DNA of 64,000 nt from Hexactinellida sp. DTS-2022 (taxonomy: Eukaryota; Porifera; Hexactinellida), in the NCBI GenBank assembly GCA_028753945.1, contig JAPNXP010000008.1, positions 558,001 through 622,000 on the forward strand. Reading direction: 5' to 3'. Every line of letters begins with the position of its first letter. Position 1 is the first letter of the stretch. A program made the translations under genes and the position numbers. Shown here one piece after another: positions 1,752-50,221 of the stretch. The notes beneath the pieces are model-generated. The model saw only the letters and a list, made by a program, of their open reading frames with translations. It was not told where the DNA came from and searched no databases.

Positions 1752-1790
1752 GTGTAAATAGTAATCAATAATGAAAAATTATGAGAGACA
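1752..1790. other. Unoccupied target site of the carrier Helitron
   Basis: Here GTGTAAATAGTAATCAA runs straight into TAATGAAAAATTATG. In units to the right the left half (GTGTAAATAGTAATTAA) is followed by a Helitron 5' end (TCTATACTATTAAAAC), and the right half (TAATGAATAAATTATG) follows a Helitron 3' end. The site therefore shows the sequence before insertion and places the insertion between A (1768) and T (1769). Confidence 0.8.
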
Positions 1791-1885
1791 TAAAAGAAGT
1801 CTAAGCACTAATAAGCTATCTAACCTAAAATCCTATTCTACAACAAAATTAGGAAATGGAATAGAAACTTTTGTAATTAATACAA

Positions 1886-2959
1886 TCATTTCCATCTATT
1901 ATTAATTTCTTCAACATCTAGATAGTCAATATTCACACAGTTCTGGAGTTTATCACAGGTGTTTCCTTTCAATACAATCGAGACTTGACAACACGCTTTG
2001 GTAGCCATTTCATATATACTCTCTGGACTATAAAAAGCACTATGTGGTGTACAGATTATATTATCACAACCATTCAAAGGACTGTTTGCAAATACAAACG
2101 GTTCACACTCGTGTACATCTAACCCAGCCCCTGCAAGCTTTCCGGATTTGAGAGCTATAGCTAAAGCATTCTCGTCGACAATCCCACCTCTTGAGATGTT
2201 CACAAGGAATGCTTTGTCTTTCATTTTAAAAATAGAATTCTCGTTTATTAAATGTCTTGTTTCATCTGTAAGTGGACAGAGAATTACAATACAATCACTA
2301 TCACCAAGCATATCGAATAAATCAGATTTTTGGAAAATACCAAATTGTTCCTTGAATTCAGAAGCTTTTGAAATGTTAATATAAGGGTCGTAATACTGGA
2401 CATGAAATCCTATAGCTTTACATTTTATAGCCAACGAAAATCCGATTTTGCCTAAGCCAATCAATCCCAGTTTCTTTCCTCTTATTCGCCTAACTGAAGG
2501 TGCCAATTCAATAAGTAATTTTTGACTTAATATCTGCCCATCTCTTGTACGGGTTGCAAGATTGAAAGTCTGTCTGTATAGATTCATGATAAGAGAAATA
2601 CCGGAATCTGCCACCTCATCTACCCCATAGTCTGGTATATTAACTACCGCAATGCCAAGAGATCCGGCATATTTAATGTTAATATTATCGAATCCAACAC
2701 CCACGCGAACAATTAATCTCAATTTGTGCATTCTATCGAGAAATGGCTTGTCTAGACTGTAGCTAATATCTGCTAGAATGGCTACAGCTTGGTTGTACTT
2801 TTCTGGTGCAATTTTTTCAATTTCTTCAGGTGATTCAGAAATGTGTACAACATCTGATAATCCTTCTGTATTCAAAATCTCCTTTTCATGATCCCAACTA
2901 AAGTCTGATAAAAATAAAACTTGTTGTTTGCAAGCGGATTTAGTATCAAAAGTTGCCAT
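1886..2959 (-). CDS. CtBP-like D-2-hydroxyacid dehydrogenase, copy 1
   Basis: A 357-residue, single-exon, complete member of the D-isomer 2-hydroxyacid dehydrogenase family, closest in pattern to the CtBP (C-terminal binding protein) branch. It shows a Rossmann GLGKIG at 168-173, the NAD-selecting aspartate in YYDPY (D191), and the catalytic Arg/Glu/His at R257 (SRGG), E286 (CEP) and H306 (TPH). These align with CtBP1 R266/E295/H315 at a constant offset of 9. The end (LQNCVN) matches the end of the CtBP core; the disordered C-terminal tail is absent. The start chosen is ATG at 2959 (MATFD, G at +4); an in-frame extension to 3040 runs into Helitron sequence. Private residue: K203. CtBP proteins are NAD-sensing co-repressors, but whether this one acts in transcription or metabolism cannot be told. 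Confidence 0.9.
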   Translation of the reverse strand: MATFDTKSACKQQVLFLSDFSWDHEKEILNTEGLSDVVHISESPEEIEKIAPEKYNQAVAILADISYSLDKPFLDRMHKLRLIVRVGVGFDNINIKYAGSLGIAVVNIPDYGVDEVADSGISLIMNLYRQTFNLATRTRDGQILSQKLLIELAPSVRRIRGKKLGLIGLGKIGFSLAIKCKAIGFHVQYYDPYINISKASEFKEQFGIFQKSDLFDMLGDSDCIVILCPLTDETRHLINENSIFKMKDKAFLVNISRGGIVDENALAIALKSGKLAGAGLDVHECEPFVFANSPLNGCDNIICTPHSAFYSPESIYEMATKACCQVSIVLKGNTCDKLQNCVNIDYLDVEEINNRWK

Positions 2960-3013
2960 AACTAAATTGGAAATTAACAATTGATTGTAACTGAATATGT
3001 TAACGAGATAATA

Positions 3014-4130
3014 TCTTATATTAAATCTATATATATACAAGACAATGTCTGTCTGTCTGTCTGTCTGTCCTCACATCTCTGAGATGCCTGAACCGATCTG
3101 TACCAAATTTTGCATATTATCTAGGAATTATCTCACCACTCCAGGGAAGAAATTTTTAAGAAAAATATTCACATCTTCCCATCCCCAAGGTGACAAAACC
3201 TTTAACCAATTAAATTCGAGGGTTGTCCCAATATGGATTAGCATCTAGCATTCAATTAGTATAAAAGGATTTTTATGTCTCTATCAATTGTTAAGTGTGC
3301 AGTATAGAATACCTAACTGAGACTGTAATTTAACTGGGCGAGAGTAAATTAATTCATCCTAACAGTTATTTGTGTTCAGTATTCCATTATGATTTCCCAT
3401 AATATAAACAACAATTGAATATACATATACAGGTAAACCTCCCAAAGCGGCACCTCCGAGTAGCGGCAACCTCCGAGAAGCGGCACAAAATCATTCTCCC
3501 GATGGGTGCCGCTTTGGGAGTTTTACCTTACGAGCAACCTCCCAAAGCGGCAACCTCCGAGAAGCGGCACAAAATCATTCTCCCGATGGGCGCCGCTTTG
3601 GGAGGTTTACCTGTAGACCAATAAAATTCAACCTTACATTTGTGTTGTTGGACAATTTAATAGTCATACCTATTGCTATACAGTCAGGTCTGCTTATTAT
3701 GAACAAGATTTAGTCTGCTTAATGTGAAGATTTTTTATTATGAACAGCCTTATGGTCCAAATTTAACAACTTACATAAGGTTTGTATTAAGTTGAGTTCG
3801 CTTATTAGGAAGTCTCTCTATTATGAACACAATTTTTGGTCCCTTGAATGTTCATAATAAAAGAACCTGACTATATATAGATAGGGTTGACATATTTTGC
3901 CAACTTCAGTCATATTTTACATACAAAATCCAAACCTGTTATCAACTATACTTAGTCTATACGTATGTCACTTAAAAAACGTCGCGTGTTGGTAATGATT
4001 GGAAACAAACGCCCAATACAGCGAGAAAGCGATTAAAACGTGAAAATGAAACTTACCACCAAATACAAAGCGTAGTAAAGCGTAGTAAACTAGCAGAAAA
4101 ACCCCGCCCAGAGGGCGGCTTTTCGGCTAG
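3014..4130 (+). mobile_element. Helitron A, unit 1 (non-autonomous)
   Basis: It starts TCTTATATTAAATC after an A and ends with a GC-rich hairpin (CCGCCCAGAGGGCGG) followed by TTTTCGGCTAG, then T. TC at the 5' end, CTAG at the 3' end, a subterminal hairpin and an A/T target are the Helitron signature. A TGTC microsatellite follows the 5' end directly. No Rep/helicase gene is present. Nested inside are a pogo-type MITE at 3430-3613 and another inverted-repeat element at 3681-3873 (CAGTCAGGTCTGCTTATTAT). The 5' end lies 54 bp upstream of the copy 1 start codon. Confidence 0.75.
3430..3613. mobile_element. Pogo/Tigger-type MITE (CAGGTAAACCTCCC), double form
   Basis: The termini CAGGTAAACCTCCCAAAGCG and its complement are flanked by TA on both sides. 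Units 2-4 have the empty site CATATAGACC, proving a TA duplication. The element is two copies of the palindrome joined by a short linker (TTACGAGCAA), so it is a tandem dimer of the roughly 100-bp form seen at 13131. Confidence 0.85.
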
Positions 4131-4529
4131 TTCATAATAAATTCATTAACAAATCTAATTAAATCTATTGTAAATATTTAACCAATCTAATCAAATATAA
4201 TAGTAAATCAATTGACAAATATAGTCCAATCGAATAGTAATTCCATTAATTACATCCAGGCCTAATGTATATAATATTGTTACAGAACTACTGATTAATT
4301 AGAATATTATGTTACTCTGTCTACTCTATAGATGATGTAGTTTCATGTAAGTATACGTGGAGTGAAGTAAATATATATCAATAGTTATTGATGTAACATG
4401 TAAGGATGGAAAGTGTAATCAATCAATAGATAATAAACGAATTAAACTCAATTATTGTTTTGTTTGTTTATTGCTGTGTTCTATTTGTTAATTGTTTGTT
4501 GTTTTGTTTAACTTATTTATTTAGAATTA
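4131..4529. other. Inter-element AT-rich spacer
   Basis: AT-rich sequence with no open frame of note, ending in TTTG/TTGT-rich sequence just before Helitron B. The same spacer recurs in units 2-4. Nothing functional is recognisable. Confidence 0.5.
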
Positions 4530-5520
4530 TCGAATTATTAAATATTTCGATATATGTATGTGTGTGTGTGTTTGTTTGTTTGTTTGTTTGTTTGTGTGTT
4601 TGTCCAGAATTAATTGGAAAGACTACGAGTCCCAGAAAGCTGAAAATTTGTATACTGGGGTAATATTGCTATTGGTCTTTGAAGATAAATATTCACATTT
4701 ATAGGTGACAAAATATGTTAGCCAATGTATGGATTAGCAGACTTCATCAATTAGTATAAATAGATCGTGCATAATAGAAAATTTTTCTGAGGCTGCAATT
4801 TGATTGATTGAAAATAAATTCATTTAACTAATCAATCATTTGTCTATTTTTTGCATGTTTTTCTTTTAGTATTATTTAGATTCGAGCTGTCCTTATCGTG
4901 CAACTGAAATTTATTGAGCTATAATGGGAGGATTTGATTTCCCCAAACAAATTACATTGTATAGCATTCTTATTAAGGGGACTTTATAAGGAATATATTT
5001 AAAACACCACAAAGATGTATAATTCTAAATTATTAGTTTCAAGACGTAGTAAGGCCGCGCAGCGGCCGTCAATTGAGGCGTGAAGCGAGCGCCGAACAAT
5101 CGCAAAGCGACCGAGACCGAAGGGCTCGTATTATTAAAACTCGATTGTTGTTTGTTTGTTTGTTTGTATATTTGTCCAGATTGTATTGAAGTGATGGAGG
5201 AATAGAAACCGCACTTTATATATGAGATAGAAACTAACTTCCAAATGTTATACAGTCGAAATCGGGTTTTTTTGCCTCTCCAGGTTATTTTTCCTCCTTG
5301 CTTCTCCTTGTTTCTTCATAACCTCATAGAACTGTACATTGTTAAATACGGGTTTTTTGCCTCTTTTTCCATGCATTTAGGGGGGCAAAAAAACCTGATT
5401 TCGACTGTAGTAGGTAAACAAGTATGCTCAAATTTTTAATCAAATTATTTATTGTCTATCGAAAAAAAGCGAGACCGCGTAGCGGTTGAGTTATCCGTCG
5501 CGAAGCGACCGAAGAGGTCG
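4530..5520 (+). mobile_element. Helitron B followed head-to-tail by truncated Helitron D, unit 1
   Basis: Helitron B (4530-5128) begins TCGAATTATTAAAT, has a GTTT microsatellite after its 5' end and closes with small hairpins (GGCCGCGCAGCGGCC, TCGCAAAGCGA) and GACCGAAGGGCTCG. Helitron D follows at once with TATTATTAAAACTCG, the family 5' end lacking its first four bases, and ends ACCGAAGAGGTCG at 5520. A pogo-type MITE (5253-5407, CAGTCGAAATCGGG ends, TA target) sits inside D. Neither Helitron encodes a protein. Confidence 0.65.
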
Positions 5521-7016
5521 TTTCTAATAAATAAGCATTTTCTTAAACAGATAAATAGTATAGAGTTAATTTAACAACAACATTGATTTTAACCTTCTTT
5601 TGTTTGGTCCCTTTGGGAAACACACACGCATTACAACTATTTTTATTGTGGTTTCACTCAATCTTCTTCCTTCGAGAGTCGAGACTAATTAATATACTAT
5701 TGGCACGACGGTCACTACCAAAAAGCCAAATCTCAATGTTGACGTATACGAATATTGTCACATGGGAGATCGTCCGCTCACTCCCATATCATGGTCAGTG
5801 GCGTATCTAGGGGGGGGGGATTTGGGTGTTCAAACACCCCTCATAACTGGTTTCCAAAAGGGATATGTTGTTATTTATAATACCTAAACATCTAAACATC
5901 TTTGATACAACTGCACAATATTACACTCCTCCTACTATGTGACAAGAATAGCTGTACATCGATGTTTGAGCGTCTAAGATTCAAAAAGATTTCTGGGGGG
6001 GTTGCCCCCCAGATCCCAACTTACCGTCGCTCGCTTCGCTCGCTCCAGAGGACCCCCCTCACGATATTCCTAGATACGCCACTGATGGTAGTCACCTCAC
6101 TTTGGTGGTGGTTTCGTCCCATTACAGGGGCCTCCTCAGGAGGGTAACCCTCGACCACTAGGACCGCACCGCGCGTCCCTTGTTACCGCCGTACTACCGG
6201 TTAGCCACGGTTACCTAACCCGCACTGCCGCTACGCTGGGCTACCACCAGCGGACTCCTGTCAGTGGAGGGGTTATTTTTATGATTTTATATAACTTCAC
6301 ATCTCCGAAAATGTACGAGTACATTACGTCACCGAGCGATCAAGTCCGCCAATTCTTCCTTTACTACCCAGGTCTATATTCTAACTTTGTAGGGATCGCG
6401 TTAATGATGTATTATTGTATAAAATAGCAACATATTTAGCTACATACTTGAGGAATCTAAAATGATTTCTTAATGATCGTAATCATCGTGTGATTCGTAA
6501 CTGAAGTTGATAGTATCTAAGTTTTGTCAGATTGACTATGTGAACACATTTGCAAAATCATTTATAACTTCACAATTCTCCGATTATCGTAGCTTAAAAT
6601 AACCCCTGCGTCACACAACACTATTGTTATGAGAACATATGCCTGGTCCTCGGGGGTACTGTCCTTGGGAAAGATAGTAAGTTGGCACTCAGGCAGAGGC
6701 GTAGCCAGGGTGCGGCACTTGGGGCACAGGCCGCACCCAAAAGATTTGTGCCCAAAAATGCCACTAGTAGTATAATACTATAGTGCGGAAATGCCGCAAC
6801 CATAATCTACCAGAGCCGCACCTTCATGCAGGTCTAGCTACGCCTCTAGTTGGCAGTACGGGGCACTACCAGGTAACATGCCGTAGATGATGTCGTGTCC
6901 TCATCTCATGACACAATTATGTACGCATTAATAGTTTACTTATATGTATACAACAGGTGATCCGATTAACTGTATTACATTATCTTATAAAGCGAATTGG
7001 TGTAAATAGTAATTAA
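5521..7016. repeat. Non-coding host block, unit 1
   Basis: Sequence shared by all units between Helitron D and the carrier Helitron. It includes a hAT-like element (5796-6084), a GC-richer stretch with GTTTCGTCCCATTAC and CAGGAGGGTAACCC motifs, and a second CAGAGGCGTAGCC-type inverted-repeat element (6694-6847) flanked by near-identical TTGGCACT and TTGGCAGT. Short open frames exist but differ in length between units and show no protein features. Confidence 0.5.
5796..6084. mobile_element. hAT-like element, CAGTGGCGTATCTAGG ends
   Basis: Ends CAGTGGCGTATCTAGG and CCTAGATACGCCACTG are perfect inverted repeats, and ATGGT is repeated at both flanks. Unit 2 has the empty site (ATATCACGGTAGTCACC near 20657-20673), which confirms insertion. 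The duplication is only 5 bp, short for hAT, so the superfamily is tentative. Confidence 0.75.
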
Positions 7017-7378: not shown

Positions 7379-8147
7379 TTAATCACTAAATGTGAAGTGA
7401 TAAGCTATCCCTCTCAAAAACTCCTCTTTGGGCCTTGTTAAATAACCCTCAATTAAATTCTCCAACGCACCCTCCCTGTCGTCGTAACACCTGCGTTTCG
7501 AAGGCTTCCTTCCTGTAATGCAAAATGCCTGTTTAACCTCAAAGGCCCTCCTCTTTCTTCAATTTATCGAGGAATTTCCAAATTGATGGGTGGTGACATG
7601 AAATATGACATCCAAATGAACGGTGCCATGCTTCCACAGCATTTGTAGTGCGGGATAAACCATTTTGCACCATGAAATGCTGATTCCACATCTGTAATGG
7701 GAACAATGGTGGTGACATTAGGGCGGAATTTGCTGTGTGCCTACCAATATAAGTTGATTCAAAATAGAGAGCCTGCCTTAATTCGATAGTTTTCGAATAC
7801 ATTTGAGTTACTTTCATGACTATGTTCATTCATTTTAGAAATAACTAGGTTTTCTTTAGTGTGTAATCTAGCCTTGCAAATACCTCTCTGAATACAGTGC
7901 CACTGGGTAACATCGTGTGTCATCCTGTGTTTTGTACAACAATATCCATCTACCTGGAGACACAATCCACCTTTTGATGTTTCAGTTACTAATAACTGAG
8001 TCGATGTGGAGGATGTGTAAACTGAGTGGATACAGTGGGACTGAAAGATGTTTGACTCTCAGGAATTTCATGAAATGGAGATGTATGAATATCGATATCA
8101 TACTCATCGTCAGAAGTGTAATTTGAAGAAGGTAAATTGTAGCTCAT
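7379..8147 (-). pseudogene. MULE-1 transposase remnant, unit 1: FLYWCH finger joined to C-terminal segment
   Basis: Reading minus from 8147 gives an acidic N-terminus (MSYNLPSS), then a FLYWCH-type zinc finger (GLCLQVDGYCYTKHR, WHC, GICKARL, NEHSHE). This jumps directly to the MULE C-terminal region (STYIGR, LWN-like QMWNQH, RTTNAVEAWHRSFG with the catalytic Glu, KPSKRR). The DDE core between is missing. Frames are broken here: an extra A near 7760 and a change near 7545 split it. It was probably once a DNA-binding repressor-like deletion derivative, now decayed. Confidence 0.75.
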
Positions 8148-13230: not shown

Positions 13231-14094
13231 TATTACTATACAATGGATTAAATAAAATTAAATAAAATAATATATGAAATTTGTTGACTTTACTCAACTC
13301 ACCGTGGATAACATTGCTAAAATAAATAACTAATAATATAATTTATTCTCAATACATAATGAATGAATGGCATTAAACTCAAGATGGTTTATTATAGAAA
13401 CAAACTTCAAATTAATCTACAGTTTCTTGTGACTCTAAACAATTAACAAATGGTTCTTGACACCCTGGGCGTTGATGACTTGGCGGAAAAAAATCCAAAA
13501 TTGCAGCCTGTGCCGACAGCATGTTCCTTTGGAGGCACTATCAATGAACAACCAACAAAATATAGTGCCACCAAAGGAACATGCGTCGGCACAGGCTGCA
13601 ATTTTGGATTTTTTTTAAATTAACACCCTTAGTTACTTATTGCTTGTGGGTGACAATTGAATATGTATAGAGTTAACAAATTAATAACAAAACTTGTCTC
13701 ATTTAGGCCGATACAAATACTGATCAACTGCCAAAATTGCTTTTCATACGGGTTTATTGAAATTATATAATTTATGTTAATTAATTGTCACGAAATGTCC
13801 AGTCACGAAAAGTCCGTGTCACGAAATGTCCTGTCACGAAATGTCTTGTCACGAAATGTCTTGTAGCGAAAAGTCCTGTCACGAAAAGTCTGTATCCCTA
13901 TTAAAACACAAGGGTGGGTGTGTATATATATATATATATATATATTTGTTTGTATGTTCCGAGTTGATTGAAGAAACTGGGCGGTTTCCAATTGAGATTT
14001 TTGGCATATAGGGGTAACTTTTGGCACCCGACAACAAGTTGAGGTTTCCATTCAAAATTTCTCACACCTCGAAGAGTTATGACGTCATTGTCAC

Positions 14095-15827
14095 GGAAGC
14101 ACGACAATTGATCACGAACAATTCACCACGAACAATTCATCGTAGGTGATAATTCATCACAAACAATTCATCGTAGGTGTTAATTCATCACTGGAAGCTT
14201 CGCAAGTGACAATTGGTCTTACAACCTTTCTTGCCATTTAACATTGGCAAAGATGAAATTTGTATAAAAGCTACTGGTAAATGCAGTGATCTTATAGTTA
14301 ACTAAATGTTCCGAAAACTATTGTCAGAGAAAGGGAAACTTAAAATTAAAAAAGAAGGCTTTTTCTACACAAAAGATAGAGAATTGTCTCTTCCTGGTAC
14401 TACTAGCTGATACTGTGACCATAAAACCAAAACAAAGTGTCGTGGACGATTGCATTTGAGTGGTGATGTAATTATAAAGTACGTGGGTGAACACAATCAC
14501 GCTGGGGATGCTTCGAAGACGCCTGTATTGATAGCGCTACAGGCGTTTCACGAAAGAGCAACCACTACTCAGGAACCAACACAGACTATAATCGCCGAAA
14601 CTACGACAAACATTCCTAATTCTTCTGCCGCACAATTACCCTCAAAATTTTGAATGAAAAGAACTGTACAAAGGCAGAGAAACCAACATAAAAATTGCCC
14701 TCCACAGCCTCATGACCTTCTATCTTTAAATATTCCAGTAGAATACACTATTCTACCAAAGCCACAGATTTCCTACTTCACGACTCTGGCCCTGGCCACA
14801 ATCGAATTTTAATATTCACCACAAGGCATAATCTAACACTACTCGCACAATGTAGCAAATGGTATGCTGATGGAACATTTAAAATCTCTCCAAATATATT
14901 TCAGCAGGTGTATACAATTCATGGCCGAGTTTTTGGGAAGCAGATTTTTCCACTTGTCTACTGTCTTTTGCCGAACAAGACTTTTGCAACCTATGAGGCC
15001 ATGCTTCAGGCACTGAAAGAGCTCCAACCTGGACTCAACCCAGATAACTTAATGACTGACTTCGAAAAAGGTGCAATCCGATCATTCCAAGAAGCGTTTC
15101 CCGGACTAAACTGTGCAGGCTGCTTTTTTCATTTTAGTCAGAGTGTTTGGCGACGAATACAAGCCGCAGGTTTGCAGCACGACTACCAAACCGATCTGTT
15201 GCCTTCCAGCTTTAGCATTCTTACCTCCTGGTGAAGTAGAACAGGCATTTTACTCTCAGCAGACGGATTTGATCCCCGAGGACTGGAAATTGCGAACTAC
15301 TTCGAGGACACATACATTGGACGACCAAACCGCCGTCGAAACCGTCAGCCCCCATTGTTCCCAATAGATCTTTGGAACGTGCATCAGCGTACAGTTGAGG
15401 ATGAAGATCGTACTAATAACCAAATCGAGAGATTTCATCGCGGATTTCAGTCCATTATTGGTGCTCAAGTACCAAACGTCTTTCGTTTCATCGAGGTTCT
15501 AGGGAAGCAGCAGATGTTAAAAGAGATAGAAGTGCAGCAGCTCATCGGAGGCCATGAGCCTCCGTCAAAAAGTAAAAAATATCAATGTTGTGATGTACGA
15601 ATTAAGAGTATCTTAAACAATATTGCTGAAAGAACCAATTGCCAAGCTTTGAAAGGAATTTCATTTTGATATAATTTCTAATAATTTCCACTTTGTACTA
15701 GCATTTTACTACCTTTATTACTTTCCAGTTAAAAAAAAAAACATACTATTATTAAACCTGGGATGAATTGTCGCCGTGATGAATTATTAACGGTGATGAA
15801 TAGTTCGTGATGAATTGTCGTGGACCC
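14095..15827 (+). mobile_element. MULE-2, unit 1 (9-bp duplication CATTGTCAC)
   Basis: The left end GGAAGCACGACAATTGATC pairs with the right end GATGAATTGTCGTGGACCC; subterminal motifs of the type ATCACGAACAATTCATCG repeat at both ends. CATTGTCAC occurs at 14086-14094 and 15828-15836. Units 2 and 4 have the uninterrupted site (27930-27938 and 48535-48543). It carries a broken transposase gene. Confidence 0.9.
14306..15669 (+). pseudogene. MULE-2 transposase, unit 1 (broken)
   Basis: The segments appear in order: a FLYWCH finger (GKLKIKKEGFFY ... KCRGRLHL ... GEHNHAG), catalytic block 1 (KWYADGTFK), block 2 (MTDFEKGA), the GCFFHFSQSVWR motif, a YFEDTYIGR-like segment, then LWNVHQR and RTNNQIERFHRGFQ carrying the third acidic residue. 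This is the MULE DDE arrangement. The frame is lost several times: a TGA replaces the Trp codon in the finger (near 14409), there is a stop and frame change after SKF (14651), and shifts near 15200-15350. Confidence 0.85.
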
Positions 15828-16264
15828 CATTGTCACATTTCGAGAACCCTGAAAATTCACTTAATCGCACATAATTCCCGCCCTTTAAGAGATAAAAATC
15901 TGAAAATTTAATAGAACATGTACATTAATGATGCGGACATGCTGGTCACACCAGATCGCCAATATGCTAACTCATTATCGCATGATGACGTAATCATTAA
16001 AATTTCATATTGTTAAATTTGACTATTTAGGCCTATTTACGCTTTATAATCTATATTATGTGTATATAAACCACACATCAACCGCAAAGCGGTTGGTGTG
16101 TGGTTATGTTCTGCCGCGAAGCGACCTAGCAAGCGAAGCGCGATAGTAATGAATAAATTATGAAAGACATAAAAGAAGTCCAAGTACTAATAAGCTATCT
16201 AACCTAAAATCCTATTCTACAACAAAATTAGGAAATGGAATAAAAACTTTTGTAATTAATACAA
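15828..16264. other. 3' part of carrier Helitron and short gene-flank spacer, unit 1
   Basis: AT-rich Helitron sequence with a TTATGACGTCATTG-linked segment before it and the GC-rich hairpin terminus at 16073-16146. The last 118 bp (16147-16264) are conserved 3' flank of gene copy 2. No gene is seen. Confidence 0.6.
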
Positions 16265-17338
16265 TCATTTCCATCTATTATTAATTTCTTCAACATCTAG
16301 ATAGTCAATATTCACACAGTTCTGGAGTTTATCATAGGTGTTTCCTTTCAATACAATCGAGACTTGACAACACGCTTTGGTAGCCATTTCATATATACTC
16401 TCTGGACTATAAAAAGCACTATGTGGTGTACAGATGATATTATCACAACCATTCAAAGGACTGTTTGCAAATACAAACGGTTCACACTCGTGTACATCTA
16501 ACCCAGCCCCTGCAAGCTTTCCGGATTTGAGAGCTATAGCTAAAGCATTCTCGTCGACAATCCCACCTCTTGATATGTTCACAAGGAATGCTTTGTCTTT
16601 CATTTTGAAAATAGAATTCTCGTTTATTAAATGTCTTGTTTCATCTGTAAGTGGACAGAGAATTACAATACAATCACTATCACCAAGCATATCGAATAAA
16701 TCAGATTTTTGGAAAATGCCAAATTGTTCCGTAAATTCAGAAGCTTTTGAAATGTTAATATAAGGGTCGTAATACTGGACATGAAATCCTATAGCTTTAC
16801 ATTTTATAGCCAACGAAAATCCGATTTTGCCTAAGCCAATCAATCCCAGTTTCTTTCCTCTTATTCGCCTAACTGAAGGTGCCAATTCAATAAGTAACTT
16901 CTGACTTAATATCTGCCCATCTCTTGTACGGGTTGCAAGATTGAAAGTCTGTCTGTATAGATTCATGATAAGAGAAATACCGGAATCTGCCACCTCATCT
17001 ACCCCATAGTCTGGTATATTAACTACCGCAATGCCAAGAGATCCGGCATATTTAATGTTAATATTATCGAATCCAACACCCACGCGAACAATTAATCTCA
17101 ATTTGTGCATTCTATCGAGAAATGGCTTGTCTAGACTGTAGCTAATATCTGCTAGAATGGCTACAGCTTGGTTGTACTTTTCTGGTGCAATTTTTTCAAT
17201 TTCTTCAGGTGATTCAGAAATGTGTACAATATCTGATAATCCTTCTGTATTCAAAATCTCCTTTTCATGATCCCAACTAAAGTCTGATAAAAATAAAACT
17301 TGTTGTTTGCAAGCGGATTTAGTATCAAAAGTTGCCAT
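16265..17338 (-). CDS. CtBP-like D-2-hydroxyacid dehydrogenase, copy 2
   Basis: Intact 357-codon copy with the GLGKIG motif and R257/E286/H306 retained. It differs from copy 1 by V37I, K203T and C335Y. Like copy 1 it carries D19, I65-S66, R81 and V86. The start is the MATFD methionine. Upstream, 54 bp from the ATG, a 787-bp Helitron (17393-18179) is inserted exactly between the host sequence and Helitron A, so this copy has the most altered 5' flank. Confidence 0.9.
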   Translation of the reverse strand: MATFDTKSACKQQVLFLSDFSWDHEKEILNTEGLSDIVHISESPEEIEKIAPEKYNQAVAILADISYSLDKPFLDRMHKLRLIVRVGVGFDNINIKYAGSLGIAVVNIPDYGVDEVADSGISLIMNLYRQTFNLATRTRDGQILSQKLLIELAPSVRRIRGKKLGLIGLGKIGFSLAIKCKAIGFHVQYYDPYINISKASEFTEQFGIFQKSDLFDMLGDSDCIVILCPLTDETRHLINENSIFKMKDKAFLVNISRGGIVDENALAIALKSGKLAGAGLDVHECEPFVFANSPLNGCDNIICTPHSAFYSPESIYEMATKACCQVSIVLKGNTYDKLQNCVNIDYLDVEEINNRWK

Positions 17339-17392: not shown

Positions 17393-18179
17393 TCTATATT
17401 ATTAAATCTCGATTGTTGTGTGTGTGTGTGTTTGTTTGTCCGGATTGTATTAAAGTGACGGGGGGATAGAAACCGCATTAATATATGAGATATTCACTAA
17501 CTTTCAAATGTTATAATATGTAAACAAGTATGCTGAACACGAATTTCGCATTTATAAATTTATAATATGAATATTTATTGTTGTTGTTTACACAAAATAG
17601 GTAAACAAATTAATGAAAATTCAAAATCAACCTAGAAGTTAGCTTCAACGGGTATTATAGGTAAACAAGTATGCTGAACACGATTTTCGCGGTTAAAATT
17701 TTCTAATATGAATATTTGTTGTTGTTGTTTACACAAAATAGGTAAACAAAAAAATGAAAATTCAGAATCAACCTAGAAGTTAGCTTTCAACGGGTATTGT
17801 AGGTAAACAAGTATGCTGAACACGAATTTCGCGTTTAAATTTTCTAATATGAATATTTGTTGTTGTTGTTGTTGTTCACTCAAAATAGCTAAACAATTTA
17901 ATGAAAATTCAAAATCAACCTAGAAGTTAACCTTCAATAGGTATTATAAGTAAACAAGTGTGCTGAACACGAATTTCGCATTTATAAAATTCTAATATGA
18001 GTATTTGTTGTTGTTGTTGTTTACACAAATAGGTAAACAAATTAATGAAAATCAAAATCATAACGTCCCTATCTACCATTTCCATGGTAGAAAATGTGAG
18101 GAGTAAGGCCGCACAGCGGCCGTTAACTTTAGGTGCGTAGCACCGATCTGTCGCAAAGCGACCGAGACCGAAGGGCTCG
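17393..18179 (+). mobile_element. Helitron C inserted at the 5' tip of Helitron A, unit 2
   Basis: It begins TCTATATTATTAAATCTCG after A17392 and ends GACCGAAGGGCTCG before T18180. Units 1, 3 and 4 have the uninterrupted sequence GAGATAATATCTTATATT, fixing both ends and the A|T target. The 3' end has small hairpins (GGCCGCACAGCGGCC, GGTGCGTAGCACC, TCGCAAAGCGA). The interior has about four tandem ~130-bp repeats carrying GGTAAACAAGTATGCTGAAC. It is non-coding. Confidence 0.85.
17510..18060. repeat. Minisatellite of ~130-bp units inside Helitron C
   Basis: Four successive units contain GTAAACAAGTATGCTGAACA, a TTGTTGTTGTT run, and AATCAACCTAGAAGTTAGC. The number of TTG triplets differs between units. 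The Helitron copy in the TRP gene intron (58488-59009, inverted) has only about two such units, so the repeat expands and contracts between copies. Confidence 0.8.
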
Positions 18180-22153: not shown

Positions 22154-22921
22154 TTAATCACTAAATGTGAAGTGATAAGCTATCCCTCTCAAAAACTCCT
22201 CTTTGGGCCTTGTTAAATAACCCTCAATTAAATTCTCCAACGCACCCTCCCTGTCGTCGTAACACCTGCGTTTCGAAGGCTTCCTTCCTGTAATGCAAAA
22301 TGCCTGTTTAACCTCAAAGGCCTGCTCTTTCTTCAATTTATCGAGGAATTTCCAAATTGATGGGTGGTGACATGAAATATGACATCCAAATGAACGGTGC
22401 CATGCTTCCACAGCATTTGAAGTGCGGGGTAAACCATTTTGCACCATGAAATGCTGATTCCACATCTGTAATGGGAACAATGGTGGTGGCATTAGGGCGG
22501 AATTTGCTGTGTGCCTACCAATATAAGTTGATTCAAAATAGAGAGCCTGCCTTAATTCGATAGTTTTCGAATACATTTGAGTTACTTTCATGACTATGTT
22601 CATTCATTTTAGAAATAACTAGGTTTTCTTTAGTGTGTAATCTAGCCTTGCAAATACCTCTCTGAATACAGTGCCACTGGGTAACATCGTGTGTCATCCT
22701 GTGTTTTGTATAACAATATCCGTCTACCTGGAGACACAATCCACCTTTTGATGTTTCAGTTACTAATAACTGAGTCGATGTGGAGGATGTGTAAACTGAG
22801 TGGATACAGTGGGACTGAAAGATGTTTGACTCTCAGGAATTTCATGAAATGGAGATGTATGAATATCGATATCATACTCATCGTCAGAAGTGTAATTTGA
22901 AGAAGGTAAATTGTAGCTCAT
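22154..22921 (-). pseudogene. MULE-1 transposase remnant, unit 2
   Basis: Same FLYWCH plus C-terminal arrangement as unit 1, with no DDE core. Here the C-terminal half is open to a natural end (KKEQAFEVKQ ... GIAYHFTFSD, stop at 22154), while an extra A near 22540 shifts the frame between the finger and the STYIGR segment. A one-base difference also breaks the N-terminal part near 22775. Confidence 0.75.
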
Positions 22922-35851: not shown

Positions 35852-36267
35852 TATTAAAACACAAGGGTGGGTGTATATATATATATATATATATAAAATG
35901 TCTCTATAGACGAGAAAGTGTCTTTAAGTGTCTTTTATGGAGTATATCCAGCAAAAGTGTCTTTACTCGGCAAATTATCCATAGGACACGCCTTGTTTTT
36001 GCCTAGGCAAAAACCCTCAACTTTTTATAAATTGTCTGTGTATCATTAGATTTAAAGACACTGTCTGTATATTTATGAAATATACAGACAGTTTTTATAT
36101 ATATATATATATATATATTTGTTTGTATGTTCCGAGTTGATTGAAGAAACTGGACGGTTTCCAATTGAGATTTTTGGCATATAGGGGTAACTTTTGGCAC
36201 CCGACAACAAGTTGAGGTTTCCACTCAAAATTTCTCACACCTCGAAGAGTTATGACGTCATTGTCAC

Positions 36268-38014
36268 GGAAGCACGACAATTGATCACGAACAATTGATC
36301 ACGAACAATTCATCGTAGGTGATAATTCATCACAAACAATTCATCGTAGGTGTTAATTCATCACTGGAAGCTTCGCAAGTGACAATTGGTTTTACAACCT
36401 TTCTTGCCATTTAACATTGGCAAAGATGAAATTTGTATAAAAGCTACTGGTAAATGCAGTGATCTTATTGTTAACTAAATGTTCCGCAAACTATTGTCAG
36501 AGAAAGGGAAACTTAAAATTAAAAAAGAAGGCTTTTTCTACACAAAAGATAGAGAATTGTCTCTTCCTGGTACTACTAGCTGGTACTGTGACCATAAAAC
36601 CAAAACAAAGTGTCGTGGACGATTGCATTTGAGTGGTGATGTAATTATAAAGTACGTGGGTGAACACAATCACGCTGGGGATGCTTCGAAGACGCCTGTA
36701 TTGATAGCGCTACAGGCGTTTCACGAAAGAGCAACCACTACTCAGGAACCAACACAGACTATAATCGCCGAAACTACGACAAACATTCCTAATTCTTCTG
36801 CCGCACAATTACCCTCAAAATTTTGAATGAAAAGAACTGTACAAAGGCAGAGAAACCAACATAAAAATTGCCCTCCACAGCCTCATGCCCTTCTATCTTT
36901 AAATATTCCAGTAGAATACACTATTCTACCAAAGCCACAGATTTCCTACTTCACGACTCTGGCCCTGGCCACAATCGAATTTTAATATTCACCACAAGGC
37001 ATAATCTAACACTACTCGCACAATGTAGCAAATGGTATGCTGATGGAACATTTAAAATTTCTCCAAATATATTTCAGCAGGTGTATACAATTCATGGCCG
37101 AGTTTTTGGGAAGCAGATTTTTCCACTTGTCTACTGTCTTTTGCCGAACAAGACTTTTGCAACCTATGAGGCCATGCTTCAGGCACTGAAAGAGCTCCAA
37201 CCTGGACTCAACCCAGATAACTTAATGACTGACTTCGAAAAAGGTGCAATCCGATCATTCCAAGAAGAGTTTCCCGGACTAAACTGTGCAGGCTGCTTTT
37301 TTCATTTTAGTCAGAGTGTTTGGCGACGAATACAAGCCGCAGGTTTGCAGCACGACTACCAAACCGATCTGTTGCCTTCCAGCTTTAGCATTCTTACCTC
37401 CTGGTGAAGTAGAACAGGCATTTTACTCTCAGCAGACGGATTTGATCCCCGAGGACTGGAAATTGCGAACTACTTCGAGGACACATACATTGGACGACCA
37501 AACCGCCGTCGAAACCGTCAGCCCCCATTGTTCCCAATAGATCTTTGGAACGTGCATCAGCGTACAGTTGAGGATGAAGATCGACTAATAACCAAATCGA
37601 GGGATTTCATCGCGGATTTCAGTCCCTTATTGGTGCTCAAGTACCAAACGTCTTTCGTTTCATCGAGGTTTCAGGGAAGCAGCAGATATTAAAAGAGATA
37701 GAAGTGCAGCAGCTCATCGGAGGCCATGAGCCTCCGTCAAAAAGGAAAAAATATCAATGTTGTGATGTACGAATTAAGAGTATCTTAAACAATATTGCTG
37801 AAAGAACCAATTGCAAAGCTTTGAAAGGAATTTCATTTTGATATAATTTCTAATAATTTCCACTTTGTACTAGCATTTTACTACCTTTATTACTTTCCAG
37901 TTAAAAAAAAAAAACATACTATTATTAAACCTGGGATGAATTGTCGCCGTGATGAATTATTAACGGTGATGAATAGTTCGTGGTGAATAGTTCGTGATGA
38001 ATTGTCGTAGACCC
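36268..38014 (+). mobile_element. MULE-2, unit 3
   Basis: Same ends and same 9-bp duplication (CATTGTCAC at 36259-36267 and 38015-38023) as in unit 1, so it is one insertion copied with the unit. The left subterminal repeats show an ATCACGAACAATTG variation. Confidence 0.9.
36479..37841 (+). pseudogene. MULE-2 transposase, unit 3 (less damaged)
   Basis: The FLYWCH finger is open here (36479-36826; Trp codon intact where unit 1 has a stop). The catalytic part reads from about 36868 to 37407 with KWYADGTFK, MTDFEKGA and GCFFHFSQSVWR. A frame change then separates PALAFLPPGEVE, and another separates the TYIGR and LWNVHQR segments; a deleted base near 37584 further breaks the RTNNQIE segment. 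A stop after SKF separates the finger from the core in both units, so an intron or an ancestral break there is possible. Confidence 0.85.
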
Positions 38015-38451: not shown

Positions 38452-39525
38452 TCATTTCCATCTATTAATAATTTCTACAGCATCTAGAAAGTTCATATTC
38501 ACACAGTTCTGGAGTTTATCACAGGTGTTTCCTTTCAATACAATCGAGACTTGACAACACGCTTTGGTAGCCATTTCATATATACTCTCTGGACTATAAA
38601 AAGCACTATGTGGTGTACAGATTATATTATCACAACCATTCAATGGACTGTTTGCAAATACAAACGGTTCACACTCGTGTACATCTAACCCAGCCCCTGC
38701 TAGTTTTCCGGATTTGAGAGCTATAGCTAAAGCATTCTCGTCGACAATCCCACCTCTTGATATGTTCACAAGGAATGCTTTGTCTTTCATTTTAAAAATA
38801 GAATTCTCGTTTATTAGATGTCTTGTTTCATCTGTAAGTGGACAGAGAATTACAATACAATCACTATCACCAAGCATATCGAATAAATCAGATTTTTGGA
38901 AAATACCAAATTGTTCCGTGAATTCAGAAGCTTTTGAAATGTTAATATAAGGGTCGTAATACTGGACATGAAATCCTATAGCTTTACATTTTATAGCCAA
39001 CGAAAATCCGATTTTGCCTAAGCCAATCAATCCCAGTTTCTTTCCTCTTATTCGCCTAACTGAAGGTGCCAATTCAATAAGTAATTTTTGACTTAATATC
39101 TGCCCATCTCTTGTACGGGTTGCTAGATTGAAAGTCTGTCTGTATAGATTCATGATAAGAGAAATACCGGAATCTGCCACCTCATCTACCCCATAGTCTG
39201 GTATATTAACCACCGCAATGCCAAGAGATCCGGCATATTTAATGTTAACATTATCAAATCCAACACCCATGCGAACAATTAATTTCAATTTGTGCATTCT
39301 ATCGAGAAATGGCTTGTCTAGACTGTAGCTAATATCTGCTAGAATGGCTACAGCTTGGTTGTACTTTTCTGGTGCAATTTTTTCAATTTCTTCAGGTGAT
39401 TCAGAAATGTGTACAACATCTGATAATCCTTCTGTATTCAAAATCTCCTTTTCATGATCCCAACTAAACTCTGATAAAAATAAAACTTGTTGTTTGCAAG
39501 CGGATTTAGTATCAAAAGTTGCCAT
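38452..39525 (-). CDS. CtBP-like D-2-hydroxyacid dehydrogenase, copy 4
   Basis: Intact 357-codon copy with the catalytic residues kept. It has E19, I65-S66, K81, M86 and V93. Its C-terminus is the most diverged of the five: I344M, D345N, Y346F, V349A, E350V and N353I all fall within ten residues, while the last RWK is kept. The cluster of changes at one end looks like a short foreign tract rather than scattered mutation. Helitron A again starts 54 bp upstream of the ATG. Confidence 0.9.
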   Translation of the reverse strand: MATFDTKSACKQQVLFLSEFSWDHEKEILNTEGLSDVVHISESPEEIEKIAPEKYNQAVAILADISYSLDKPFLDRMHKLKLIVRMGVGFDNVNIKYAGSLGIAVVNIPDYGVDEVADSGISLIMNLYRQTFNLATRTRDGQILSQKLLIELAPSVRRIRGKKLGLIGLGKIGFSLAIKCKAIGFHVQYYDPYINISKASEFTEQFGIFQKSDLFDMLGDSDCIVILCPLTDETRHLINENSIFKMKDKAFLVNISRGGIVDENALAIALKSGKLAGAGLDVHECEPFVFANSPLNGCDNIICTPHSAFYSPESIYEMATKACCQVSIVLKGNTCDKLQNCVNMNFLDAVEIINRWK

Positions 39526-39579
39526 AACTAAATTGGAAATTAACAATTGATTGTAACTGAATATGTTAACGAGATAATA

Positions 39580-44143: not shown

Positions 44144-44912
44144 TTAATCACTAAATGTGAAGTGATAAGCTATCCCTCTCAAAAACTCCTCTTTGGGCCT
44201 TGTTAAATAACCCTCAATTAAATTCTCCAACGCACCCTCCCTGTCGTCGTAACACCTGCGTTTCGAAGGCTTCCTTCCTGTAATGCAAAATGCCTATTTA
44301 ACCTCAAAGGCCCTCCTCTTTCTTCAATTTATCGAGGAATTTCCAAATTGATGGGTGGTGACATGAAATATGACATCCAAATGAACGGTGCCATGCTTCC
44401 ACAGCATTTGTAGTGCGGGGTAAACCATTTTGCACCATGAAATGCTGATTCCACATCTGTAATGGGAACAATGGTGGTGACATTAGGGCGGAATTTTCCG
44501 TGTGCCTACCAATATAAGTTGATTCAAATAGAGAGCCTGCCTTAATTCGATAGTTTTCGAATACATTTGAGTTACTTTCATGACTATGTTCATTCATTTT
44601 AGAAATAACTAGGTTTTCTTTAGTGGGTAATCTAGCCTTGCAAATACCTCTCTGAATACAGTGCCACTGGGTAACATCGTGTGTCATCCTGTGTTTTGTA
44701 TAACAATATCCATCTACCTGGAGACACAATCCACCTTTTGATGTTTCAGTTACTAATAACTGAGTCGATGTGGTAGGATGTGTAAACTGAGTGGATACAG
44801 TGGGACTGAAAGATGTTTGACTCTCAGGAATTTCATGAAATGGAGATGTATGAATATCGATATCATACTCATCGTCAGAAGTGTAATTTGAAGAAGGTAA
44901 ATTGTAGCTCAT
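44144..44912 (-). pseudogene. MULE-1 transposase remnant, unit 4 (202-codon open frame)
   Basis: The best-preserved version. One open frame, 44912 to 44304, joins the acidic N-terminus, the FLYWCH finger (cysteines and histidines in GYCYTKHR, WHC and NEHSHE) and the C-terminal block RTTNAVEAWHRSFG. It then stops after DKLKKEEGL because of a base change near 44308; the ancestral frame continues to about 44144. The MULE DDE core is absent, so it cannot be an active transposase. It could bind DNA if expressed. Confidence 0.75.
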
Positions 44913-46230: not shown

Positions 46231-46593
46231 CCTGGGGTCAGGATTTTTGATTACATTTTTTTGGACACATTTTCACACCTGTTTAATGTTGGAAAAGAAC
46301 AATAAACAGTGTGAATATTCAATTTATATGCATTCGATAGAGAATTAAATTCTACACCTTTTCACAGTGCACGAATTTTCAAATTCCGCTTCGTTTGTGC
46401 CACTATTGAGTTGCAAATTTCCTTTGTTTACTAACACTTCAGTTCAATTGAAAGTGTTAAATCTAATTCTATTGTTTCTACTTGTAATAATTGTATTGAT
46501 TTAACTTGTTAAATCTTAGTCTATTGATTCAACTCGCGATAATTATATTGATTTAATTTATAAATTCCAGCTGGCTTCTATTTAATTGTAGTA

Positions 46594-46767
46594 CAGTGGA
46601 AGCCGCTTAATCGGGAGACGGTTAATCGGGAAATTCGGTTATTCGGGACGAGCCTTTGGAAACCAATTCGTATTAAATAGTATAAAGTATATCGGTTAAT
46701 CGGGAGAACCGGATAAACGGGACTAAATTCCTACTCCCGAGGCGTCCCGATTAAGCGGCTTCCACTG
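46594..46767. mobile_element. Pogo/Tigger-type MITE (CAGTGGAAGCCGC)
   Basis: Ends CAGTGGAAGCCGCTTAATCG and GATTAAGCGGCTTCCACTG, TA on both sides. It sits at the AATTGTAGTA dinucleotide used by a different MITE in other monomers. Confidence 0.85.
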
Positions 46768-47572
46768 TATTACAATACAATGGATTAAATAAAATATAAT
46801 AATACATGTATAAGGAATTTGTTGACTTAACTCACTCACCGTGGATAACATTGCTAAAATAAATAACTAATAATATAATTTATTATTAATACATAATGAA
46901 TGAATGGCATTAAACTAAAGATGGTTTATGATAGAAACAAACTTCAAATTTATCTACCGTTCCTTGACTCGGACCAATTAACAAATGCTTCTTCACACCT
47001 TGGGCGTTGATGACTTGGCGAAAAAAATCCAAAATTGCAGCCTGCGCCGACAGCATGTTCCTTTGTTTTTTCTCCGTAGCAGGTGCCCTGGCCACACCTG
47101 TATACATTGAGGGCTGAAACTTGGCATGTAGTTGCGGAGTGACCGTCTAATTTGCACCTGTGGTTACAATTTTTTATCAAATGATTTCAACACCTATTTA
47201 AACTAATTATGGCTCATAACATGAAATAATTAATATTGAGCTTGATAAAATTTACATATACAGATAGAGAATTAAATTCTACACCTTTTGGCAATTCACA
47301 AATGTTCAATTTAGCCTAGGTTTGTGCCATAATTGGGGTTCCAATCTCCTGTGTTTCCTCACACTTCAGATTCAGTAAAACTGTTAAATCTAATTCTATT
47401 GTTTCAACTTGTATTAATTATATTGATTTAACTTGTTAAACCTTACTCTATTGTTTCAACTTGCGATAATTATATTGATTTAACTTGTTAAAACTTTATC
47501 TATTGTTTCAACTTGTGATAAATATATTGATTTAACTTGTAGATTCCAGCTGGCTTCTATTTAATTGTAGTA

Positions 47573-47672
47573 CAAGTAAACCTCCCAAAGCGGCACCTCC
47601 GAGTAGCGGCAACCTCCGAGAAGCGGCACAAAATCATTCTCCCGATGGGTGCCGCTTTGGGAGGTTTACCTG
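47573..47672. mobile_element. Pogo/Tigger-type MITE, unit 4 copy
   Basis: Same 100-bp palindrome and target as 13131-13230 and 35070-35169. Confidence 0.8.
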
Positions 47673-48972
47673 TATTACTATACAATGGATTAAATAAAAT
47701 AAAATAAAATAATATATGAAATTTGTTGACTTTACTCAACTCACCGTGGATAACATTGCTAAAATAAATAACTAATAATATAATTTATTATCAATACATA
47801 ATAAATGAATGGCATTAAACTCAAGATGGTTTATTATAGAAACAAACTTCAAATAAATCTACAGTTTCTTGTGACTCGAAACAATTAACAAATGGTTCTT
47901 GACACCCTGGGCGTTGATGACTTGGCGGAAAAAAATCCAAAATTGCAGCCTGTGCCGACAGCATGTTCCTTTGGAGGCACTATCAATGAACAACCAACAA
48001 AATATAGTGCCACCAAAGGAACATGCGTCGGCACAGGCTGCAATTTTGCATTTTTTTAAAATTAACACCCTTAGTTAGTTATTGCTTGTGGGTGACAATT
48101 GAATATGTATAGAGTTAACAAATTAATAACAAAACTTGTCTCATTTAGGCCGATACAAATACTGATCAACTACCAAAATTGCTTTTCATACGGGTTTATT
48201 GAAATTATATAATTTATGTTAATTAATTGTCACGAAATGTTCAGTCACGAAAAGTCCGTGTCACGAAATGTCCTGTCACGAAATGTCTTGTCGCGAAGTG
48301 TCCGTCACGAAATGTCTTGTAGCGAAAAGTCTGTATCCCTATTAAAACACAAGGGTGGGTGTGTATATACGTATATATATATATATATATATATTTGTTT
48401 GTATGTTCCGAGTTGATTGAAGAAACTGGACGGTTTCCAATTGAGATTTTTTGCATATAGGGGTAACTTTTGGCACCCGACAACAAGTTGAGGTTTCCAC
48501 TCAAAATTTCTCACACCTCGAAGAGTTATGACGTCATTGTCATATTTCGAGAACCCTTAAAATTCACTTAATCGCACATAATTCCCGCCCTTTAAGAGAT
48601 AAAAATCTGAAAATTTAATAGAACATGTACATTAATGATACGGACATGCTGGTCACACCAGATCGCCAATATGCTAACTCATTATCGCATGATGACGTAA
48701 TCATTAAAATTTCATATTGTTAAATTTGACTATTTAGGCCTATTTACGCTTTATAATCTATATTATATGTATATAAACCACACATCAACACGCAAAGCGG
48801 TTGGTGTGTGGTTATGTTCTGCCGCGAAGCGACCTAGCAAGCGAAGCGCGATAGTAATGAATAAATTATGAAAGACATAAAAGAAGTCCAAGTACTAATA
48901 AGCTATCTAACCTAAAATCCTATTCTACAACAAAATTAGGAAATGGAATAAAAACTTTTGTAATTAATACAA

Positions 48973-50046
48973 TCATTTCCATCTATTATTAATTTCTTCA
49001 ACATCTAGATAGTCAATATTCACACAGTTCTGGAGTTTATCACAGGTGTTTCCTTTCAATACAATCGAGACTTGACAACACGCTTTGGTAGCCATTTCAT
49101 ATATACTCTCTGGACTATAAAAAGCACTATGTGGTGTACAGATGATATTATCACAACCATTCAAAGGACTGTTTGCAAATACAAACGGTTCACACTCGTG
49201 TACATCTAACCCAGCCCCTGCTAGTTTTCCGGATTTGAGAGCAATAGCTAAAGCATTCTCGTCGACAATCCCACCTCTTGATATGTTCACAAGGAATGCT
49301 TTGTCTTTCATTTTTAAAATAGAATTCTCGTTTATTAAATGTCTTGTTTCATCTGTAAGTGGACAGAGAATTACAATACAATCACTATCACCAAGCATAT
49401 CGAATAAATCAGATTTTTGGAAAATGCCAAATTGTTCCGTAAATTCAGAAGCTTTTGAAATGTTAATATAAGGGTCATAATACTGGACATTAAATCCTAT
49501 AGCTTTACATTTTATAGCCAACGAAAATCCGATTTTGCCTAAACCAATCAATCCCAGTTTCTTTCCTCTTATTCGCCTAACTGAAGGTGCCAATTCAATA
49601 AGTAACTTCTGACTTAATATCTGCCCATCTCTTGTACGGGTTGCTAGATTGAAAGTCTGTCTGTATAGATTCATGATAAGAGAAATACCGGAATCTGCCA
49701 CCTCATCTACCCCATAGTCTGGTATATTAACTACCGCAATGCCAAGAGATCCGGCATATTTAATGTTAATATTATCGAATCCAACACCCATGCGAACAAT
49801 TAATTTCAATTTGTGCATTCTATCGAGAAATGGCTTGTCTAGACTGTAGGTATGATCTGCAAGAATGGCTACAGCTTGGTTGTACTTTTCTGGTGCAATT
49901 TTTTCAATTTCTTCAGGTGATTCAGAAATGTGTACAACATCTGATAATCCTTCTGTATTCAAAATCTCCTTTTCATGATCCCAACTAAAGTCTGATAAAA
50001 ATAAAACTTGTTGTTTGCAAGCGGATTTAGTATCAAAAGTTGCCAT
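48973..50046 (-). CDS. CtBP-like D-2-hydroxyacid dehydrogenase, copy 5 (right end of array)
   Basis: Intact 357-codon copy with GLGKIG and R257/E286/H306. It has D19, H65-T66, K81, M86, H186N and F244L. Its upstream sequence resembles the other copies for only about 40 bp, with more mismatches than the gene body, and then becomes unique. No Helitron A is present, so this is the only copy with a native-looking 5' flank and may represent the founder promoter. All five copies lack introns, whereas animal CtBP genes usually have several, so a retrocopy origin is possible; no poly-A tract remains to prove it. Confidence 0.9.
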   Translation of the reverse strand: MATFDTKSACKQQVLFLSDFSWDHEKEILNTEGLSDVVHISESPEEIEKIAPEKYNQAVAILADHTYSLDKPFLDRMHKLKLIVRMGVGFDNINIKYAGSLGIAVVNIPDYGVDEVADSGISLIMNLYRQTFNLATRTRDGQILSQKLLIELAPSVRRIRGKKLGLIGLGKIGFSLAIKCKAIGFNVQYYDPYINISKASEFTEQFGIFQKSDLFDMLGDSDCIVILCPLTDETRHLINENSILKMKDKAFLVNISRGGIVDENALAIALKSGKLAGAGLDVHECEPFVFANSPLNGCDNIICTPHSAFYSPESIYEMATKACCQVSIVLKGNTCDKLQNCVNIDYLDVEEINNRWK

Positions 50047-50221
50047 AAATAATTTGGAAAATAACATTTGATTGTGACTGAATATGTTAAAATTATGTAC
50101 AAAAAGCTTATGGGTTATTGTTATATCATTGATATCGATACAGTTCCCAGATTTTGATCGTTTTAATCTTGGATTTTTAGTGTGCTTCTTCTAGTAAAAA
50201 ACGTTATAGTAGGGTCCTACT

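What the first reader, a model, noticed from the sequence alone, without database searches (positions are those of the whole stretch)
1790..50090. Five-copy tandem cluster of an intronless CtBP-like gene, every copy open
All five copies keep the full 357-codon frame, the Rossmann motif and the Arg/Glu/His triad while surrounding transposons decay and the MULE genes between them are broken. That contrast suggests either selection on the gene or very recent amplification. CtBP is normally a one- or two-copy, intron-rich regulator in animals, so a tandem intronless cluster is unusual.
Basis: partly seen in the sequence, partly recalled or inferred. Interest (0 to 1): 0.75.

Follow-up and report, generated by a model that had tools for sequence, protein, structure and literature searches.

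The report
Five-copy single-exon CtBP-like gene array
A genome that looks like a sponge's carries a row of five intact, recently duplicated copies of a gene related to the animal gene regulator CtBP; the row itself looks like ordinary gene duplication, but so close a CtBP relative outside the bilaterian animals would question the published view that CtBP arose with them.

Summary
Five minus-strand copies keep a 357-codon frame, the GLGKIG motif and the Arg/Glu/His triad; a sixth, cut copy lies 29 kb right of copy 5. No other CtBP-like gene was found in the 112-Mb assembly. Copies differ at 0.9-2.4% of coding sites. Pooled changes are 19 replacement: 18 silent (omega about 0.35, P 0.0015); coding sequence has no indel, flanks have many. 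So: recent local amplification, purifying selection, gene conversion (76 of 136 site pairs incompatible). A Mutator-like element sits beside two copies but copy 5 has its empty site, so it is not the vehicle. Single exons are unremarkable here: five of six other genes inspected are single long frames. The protein groups with rat CtBP1 (46% identity; 99-100/97) rather than with bacterial relatives, but lacks the C-terminal tail, and all three tetramer residues called invariant in bilaterians differ. Host gene content fits a glass sponge (inferred, with open points). Tandem clusters of single-exon genes are known from glass sponges, so the array is ordinary; a CtBP-clade gene at 46% identity in a non-bilaterian, if confirmed, is the interesting part.

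The parts
1886..2959 (-). copy 1, CtBP-like CDS, 357 codons
16265..17338 (-). copy 2, CtBP-like CDS, 357 codons
29205..30278 (-). copy 3, CtBP-like CDS, 357 codons
38452..39525 (-). copy 4, CtBP-like CDS, 357 codons; six replacement changes in its last 14 codons
48973..50046 (-). copy 5, CtBP-like CDS, 357 codons (364 from an upstream in-frame ATG at 50067)
1769..50090 (.). tandem array; homology among units begins at 1769 and ends 44 nt upstream of the copy-5 ATG. A sixth, truncated copy (last 111-115 codons) lies right of the window at C17:636891-637235
14094..15827 (+). MULE-type element beside copy 2, with an 8-bp target duplication (14086-14093 and 15828-15835) and inverted ends
36267..38014 (+). 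the same MULE insertion beside copy 4 (FLYWCH frame 36479-36826, MULE frame 36868-37407)
48535..48542 (.). empty site of that MULE beside copy 5 (single copy of the 8-bp target)
17410..18179 (.). insert with 141-bp tandem repeats upstream of copy 2, absent from copies 1, 3 and 4

Best explanation
A single-exon CtBP-clade gene in a genome that looks like a glass sponge's was amplified by local tandem duplication of 9-14-kb segments (most likely unequal crossing-over; inferred), then partly homogenised by gene conversion, while purifying selection kept the five coding frames intact. The product is a bare NAD(H)-binding 2-hydroxyacid-dehydrogenase core of CtBP type, without the C-terminal tail and with a remodelled tetramer-contact loop. 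Most likely it works as an NAD(H)-dependent dehydrogenase or redox-sensing dimer whose extra copies raise dose (inferred; no expression, assay or structure model), rather than as the tetrameric corepressor of bilaterians. Shown: array, open frames, selection signal, clade within the sampled set, altered residues. Inferred: host group, duplication mechanism, biochemical role.
For: Five open frames, no other CtBP-like gene found in the genome. 19 replacement: 18 silent derived states; omega 0.30-0.39 for kappa 1-3, P 0.0003-0.004; 0.20-0.27 without the last 14 codons. Gap openings: 0 in 10,740 coding columns against 163 in 32,893 non-coding columns, pairwise and not independent. 76 of 136 informative site pairs fail the four-gamete test. 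The best 15 of 164 solved relatives are CtBP1/2 at 261-276 bits, the next has 158. Window + rat CtBP1 is a clade, 100/97 in 46 rows and 99/97 in 26 rows; two groupings of the window row with bacterial rows and one of rat CtBP1 with bacterial rows are rejected, AU P 0.0199, 0.0009 and 0.0152. Triad and NAD-type Asp kept in 5 of 5 copies, residues at R184/G210/L215 changed in 5 of 5. Host content: 16 homeodomain matches, no Wnt match, two Frizzled-family frames, much as described for glass sponges (PMC10280926, PMC5684314, passages).
Against: No transcripts or reads were available. Overall substitution density is no lower in coding than in non-coding columns (0.0169 against 0.0156), and pairwise dS (0.027-0.060) exceeds the non-coding divergence, so the flanks are an imperfect neutral yardstick. 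Copy 4 has 7 replacement: 2 silent private changes and may be drifting. In one of four pairs examined (copies 2 and 4) the coding part is more diverged than the flanks (25 of 1074 against 21 of 2410, P 0.001; the other three pairs P 0.58-1.0). Absence of stops alone is weak: chance of none among 37 random changes 0.16-0.27. The trees hold one bilaterian CtBP and no fungal, plant, choanoflagellate, cnidarian or other sponge homologue; the window row is on a long branch with odd letter make-up, and the AU groupings were named after the first tree. Host: a second, partial DIX match in C14 is unresolved, two Frizzled-family frames against one reported for Oopsacas, and the Wnt search had no positive control.
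Confidence: 0.6

Rival explanations
1. Recent acquisition of a bacterial CtBP-like dehydrogenase gene (single exon because bacterial), then amplified.
For: Single exon; prokaryotic relatives at E 1e-40 or better in 21 of 387 genomes of one phylum and 20 of 398 of another, five of which, aligned, share the NxPDYG motif and Phe at the Trp318 position.
Against: Rat CtBP1 scores 275 bits, the best bacterial row 189; clade with rat CtBP1 99-100/97 and AU rejection of the two groupings of the window row with bacterial rows that were tested; single long frames are common among other genes inspected here. Sampling: one motif-limited scan of species genomes and two phyla.
Confidence: 0.12
2. Retrocopy of an intron-bearing CtBP, later amplified.
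For: Single exon.
Against: No intron-bearing parent found in the genome; no poly-A run in the aligned 300 nt after the stop, though one could have decayed; single long frames are common here.
Confidence: 0.08
3. The gene is cargo of the neighbouring MULE element and spread by transposition.
For: MULE remains lie next to copies 2 and 4 and within the sixth, partial unit.
Against: The MULE has its own inverted ends and an 8-bp target duplication and ends 437 bp short of the copy-4 stop; copy 5 has the empty site. The copies found all sit in one array.
Confidence: 0.03
4. Unselected recent duplicates whose frames are open only by youth, or partly an assembly artefact.
For: Low divergence; no stop among 37 random changes has chance 0.16-0.27; overall coding and non-coding substitution densities are alike; no reads to check.
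Against: Excess of silent over replacement changes relative to expectation and no coding indels; different junctions per copy.
Confidence: 0.17

Closest known systems
Animal C-terminal binding protein (CtBP1/2)
   Same: Dehydrogenase core, 46% identity to rat CtBP1 over 291 columns; NAD-type Asp204; triad R266/E295/H315; tree clade
   Different: No C-terminal tail; Phe at Trp318; residues at R184, G210 and L215 all changed; four extra residues in the loop after DPY; five tandem single-exon genes
   Same: Same superfamily; NxPDYG motif and Phe at the 318 position in five of the five aligned (L020 is cut short and was not in it)
   Different: 37-42% identity, separate branch in the trees; keep G210 in 5 of 5 and R184 in 4 of 5
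Tandem single-exon gene clusters of the glass sponge Aphrocallistes vastus (PMC10282587, passages read)
   Same: Local clusters of mostly single-exon duplicates (38 of 50 genes of one cluster)
   Different: Other gene families; the terms CtBP and C-terminal binding do not occur in that paper's main text
Phosphoglycerate dehydrogenase and the C7 dehydrogenase of the same genome
   Same: Same superfamily, single long frames at C18:662k and C7:1086k
   Different: About 30% identity and other branches of the tree

Membership tests
CtBP clade of D-2-hydroxyacid dehydrogenases | Groups with animal CtBP rather than other subfamilies | tested here: met
   sampling limited to one animal CtBP plus prokaryotes and own paralogues
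CtBP clade of D-2-hydroxyacid dehydrogenases | Catalytic triad R/E/H and NAD-preferring Asp | tested here: met
   5 of 5 copies
Bilaterian CtBP corepressor | Tetramer residues R, G, L, completely conserved in bilaterians (PMC9907507, section 18) | tested here: not met
   K, E or S (alignment-dependent), F in 5 of 5 copies; the mapping from CtBP2 to CtBP1 numbers is mine
Bilaterian CtBP corepressor | Unstructured C-terminal domain, usually about 100 residues (PMC9907507, passage) | tested here: not met
   frame ends about 10 residues after the core
Bilaterian CtBP corepressor | Trp318 switch (PMC6303947, section 13) | tested here: not met
   Phe in 5 of 5; I recall, untested, that fly CtBP also has Phe, so this alone is not diagnostic
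Bilaterian CtBP corepressor | PXDLS-peptide binding and repression | not testable with these tools
   needs binding and reporter assays
Retrogene | Intron-bearing parent gene in the genome | tested here: not met
   none found, by exon-wise search
Retrogene | Poly-A tail and target duplication | tested here: inconclusive
   no poly-A run after the stop, may have decayed; target duplication not tested
MULE-carried gene (Pack-MULE) | Gene lies between the element's inverted ends | tested here: not met
   gene outside the ends; empty site in copy 5
Host: glass sponge (Hexactinellida) | Few homeodomains (Msx, NK, POU, LIM, Six types), no Wnt, no Dishevelled, Frizzled B present | tested here: inconclusive
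   class labels of homeodomains are my reading; Wnt absence rests on an exon-wise search without a positive control; a partial DIX match is unresolved

The most novel reading that the evidence does not exclude
CtBP predates Bilateria: this sponge-like genome keeps a core-only CtBP that descends from the same stem as the bilaterian corepressor, has lost its tetramer interface and has become a selected multi-copy enzyme, so the corepressor's tail and assembly can be traced as later additions to, or losses from, a bacterial-type dehydrogenase.
Probability: 0.45. Interest if true: 0.62.

Novelty: new variant of a known kind. Interest (0 to 1): 0.42.

Why it matters
Two papers place the origin of CtBP in bilaterians (PMC9907507, sections 5 and 18 read; PMC11594159, Table 2 seen as a passage, with orthologues defined there by annotation name). 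The first reports only about 30%-identical homologues in representative Cnidaria and Porifera. A 46%-identical core in a sponge would move the origin back, and its altered tetramer residues would give a natural test of which parts of the core corepression needs.

Tried and rejected
Retrocopy, MULE cargo and recent bacterial transfer were tested and judged unlikely (see rivals). The first genome-contig scan with one protein found no relative; the second, with an alignment, found 84 in 216 candidate stretches, 80 kept. Naming the host from the assembly length failed: 2 papers, both unrelated. A bacterial-type promoter scan upstream of copy 5 was uninformative (2 sites against 1.6 expected). Structure prediction could not be run; Rfam, plasmid/phage/E. 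coli similarity and fold searches were not run. Two further proteins of the window gave no solved relative. Searches for sponge CtBP or an intronless or tandem CtBP in print: among the titles and abstract starts listed I saw none that reports one; of the listed papers I opened only PMC9907507, PMC6303947, PMC11594159 and PMC10027918, by sections or passages, so this is no proof of absence.

Full report
Observation. The window is C17:558001-622000 of a 112.4-Mb, 18-contig assembly. Five minus-strand frames of 357 codons from a shared ATG are open, with stops at 1886, 16265, 29205, 38452 and 48973. A protein search of the whole genome gives 10 matches: these five at 96-100% identity, one 3' piece at C17:636891-637235, and four at 31-39%. 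The DNA search gives 17: the same six and 11 short matches of 33-40 bases to a dispersed repeat upstream of copy 5. A Pfam search for the NAD-binding domain (12 matches) and a search with the rat CtBP1 core (10 matches) add no intron-bearing CtBP; these searches are exon-wise. The other superfamily matches examined are a phosphoglycerate dehydrogenase (C18:662k), a short dehydrogenase (C7) and a split, intron-bearing one at C17:215-218 kb. The two weakest Pfam matches (C12 and C18:5489k) gave no tblastn match to the window protein and were not examined further.

Array anatomy. Long blocks in register are 94-99% alike; internal repeats are less so. Copies 1, 3 and 4 share their upstream sequence; copy 2 has a repeat-bearing insert there; copy 5 shares only 44 nt upstream of the ATG, so in a tandem model copy 5 holds the flank of the ancestral gene (inference). 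A MULE-type element of about 1.7 kb lies beside copies 2 and 4, with inverted ends and an 8-bp target duplication; copy 5 has the empty site. Pieces of the same block are in the sixth unit. FLYWCH fragments of a minus-strand element lie at 7759-8058, 22533-22832 and 44304-44912.

Selection. The five copies show 37 distinct derived nucleotide states, 19 replacement and 18 silent. With kappa 1.9 this is omega 0.35, P 0.0015; leaving out the last 14 codons (13:18) gives 0.24. Pairwise omega is 0.07-0.44 over ten pairs. In 26 pairwise alignments of at least 900 columns and 94% identity, coding columns have 182 substitutions and no gap in 10,740, non-coding ones 514 substitutions and 163 gap openings in 32,893; pairs are not independent. 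At that gap-to-substitution ratio about 12 coding indels would be expected for 37 changes (my arithmetic). Against the reading: the overall substitution density is no lower in coding columns; dS (0.027-0.060) exceeds the non-coding divergence; copy 4 has 7 replacement and 2 silent private changes, six of the seven in its last 14 codons; and copies 2 and 4, one of four pairs examined, differ more in the coding part than in the flanks. Of 17 informative sites, 76 of 136 pairs fail the four-gamete test, which indicates gene conversion or recombination among copies.

Identity. Of 164 solved relatives at E 0.001 (60 shown), the best 15 are all CtBP1 or CtBP2 (261-276 bits); the next has 158. For the trees I had 115 proteins: two window copies, rat CtBP1, two own paralogues, 80 loci and 30. 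Of these, 46 rows went into the first tree: the 45 best-scoring, less one duplicate locus, plus the two paralogues. Window + rat CtBP1 is a clade (100/97) within a set of nine rows (100/98) that also holds six prokaryotic rows. A hand-picked set of 26 gives 99/97. Three other groupings, named after the first tree, are rejected: window with L111 (AU P 0.0199), window with L125, L113, L110, L112 and L020 (P 0.0009), rat with L113, L110, L112 and L020 (P 0.0152). The window row has odd letter make-up and a long branch. The phylum searches matched 21 of 387 and 20 of 398 genomes at E 1e-40; the best match has 189 bits and 41% identity. No other eukaryote was available, so this supports 'CtBP clade' but not orthology.

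Residues. With rat CtBP1 numbered so that GLGRVG is 181-186 (numbering and names of the sites recalled, checked by the triad and Trp318 falling in place), all five copies keep D204, R266, E295 and H315 and have F at 318. The three tetramer residues reported as completely conserved in bilaterians (PMC9907507, section 18 read) map to R184, G210 and L215. Here they are K, then E or S depending on alignment, and F, with four extra residues in the loop. Among five bacterial sister rows R184 is kept in 4, G210 in 5 and L215 in 3, so the window state looks derived. A Trp318-to-Phe change in human CtBP1 is said to abolish tetramers (PMC6303947, section 13 read); but Phe stands in 7 and Trp in 5 of the 16 prokaryotic rows, and, as I recall, Phe in fly CtBP, so little rests on it.

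Host. There are 16 homeodomain matches; of ten fetched, nine were read, and I take them as Msx-, NK-, Bar/Tlx-, POU-, LIM-, paired- and Six-like (labels recalled). No Wnt match, no neurotransmitter-gated channel match and two Frizzled-family frames fit the published glass-sponge repertoire of 20 homeodomain proteins, no Wnt, and Frizzled B (PMC10280926 and PMC5684314, passages read), though Oopsacas is reported to lack Frizzled A. One of two DIX matches is a Dixin-like protein with a CH domain; the other, partial one in C14 is unresolved and could speak against a glass sponge, which is reported to lack Dishevelled. The Wnt and channel searches had no positive control. Of six other genes inspected, five (phosphoglycerate dehydrogenase, the C7 dehydrogenase, two Frizzled-family genes, the Dixin-like gene) are single long frames and one is split; they were met through domain searches that favour long frames. 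Oopsacas has 1.59 introns per gene (PMC10280926, passage), and Aphrocallistes has many single-exon genes and tandem clusters (PMC10282587, passages).

Conclusion. The array is a real, young, selected, but ordinary kind of tandem duplication. What may be new is the gene: a core-only CtBP-clade protein with a changed assembly interface in a genome that looks non-bilaterian.

Noticed in passing
window 57405-60226 and C17:623143-625075 (window-equivalent 65143-67075): A second tandem duplication, 87-89% alike, of an ankyrin-repeat gene followed by a membrane protein that looks like a TRP-type channel (label is my reading; no Pfam or solved-structure match).
   Followed up: partly
window 16265-17338 and 38452-39525 with flanks: Between copies 2 and 4 the coding part is about 2.7 times as diverged as the flanks (P 0.001), not so in three other pairs; conversion tracts of different age are a possible cause.
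   Followed up: partly
window 39526-39539 (likewise upstream of copies 1-3) and 50047-50060: Copies 1-4 have TTTCCAATTTAG two bases before the ATG, like a splice acceptor; copy 5 lacks the AG. Possible splicing or trans-splicing site, untested.
   Followed up: no
window 52105-53160: Intact 351-aa frame with no Pfam or solved-structure match; by eye it begins like a secreted protein.
   Followed up: partly
L020, L110-L113, L125: Rat CtBP1 and the window gene sit inside a set of prokaryotic CtBP-like proteins in the tree (100/98), which hints at an old transfer between bacteria and animals; no other eukaryotes were available.
   Followed up: no
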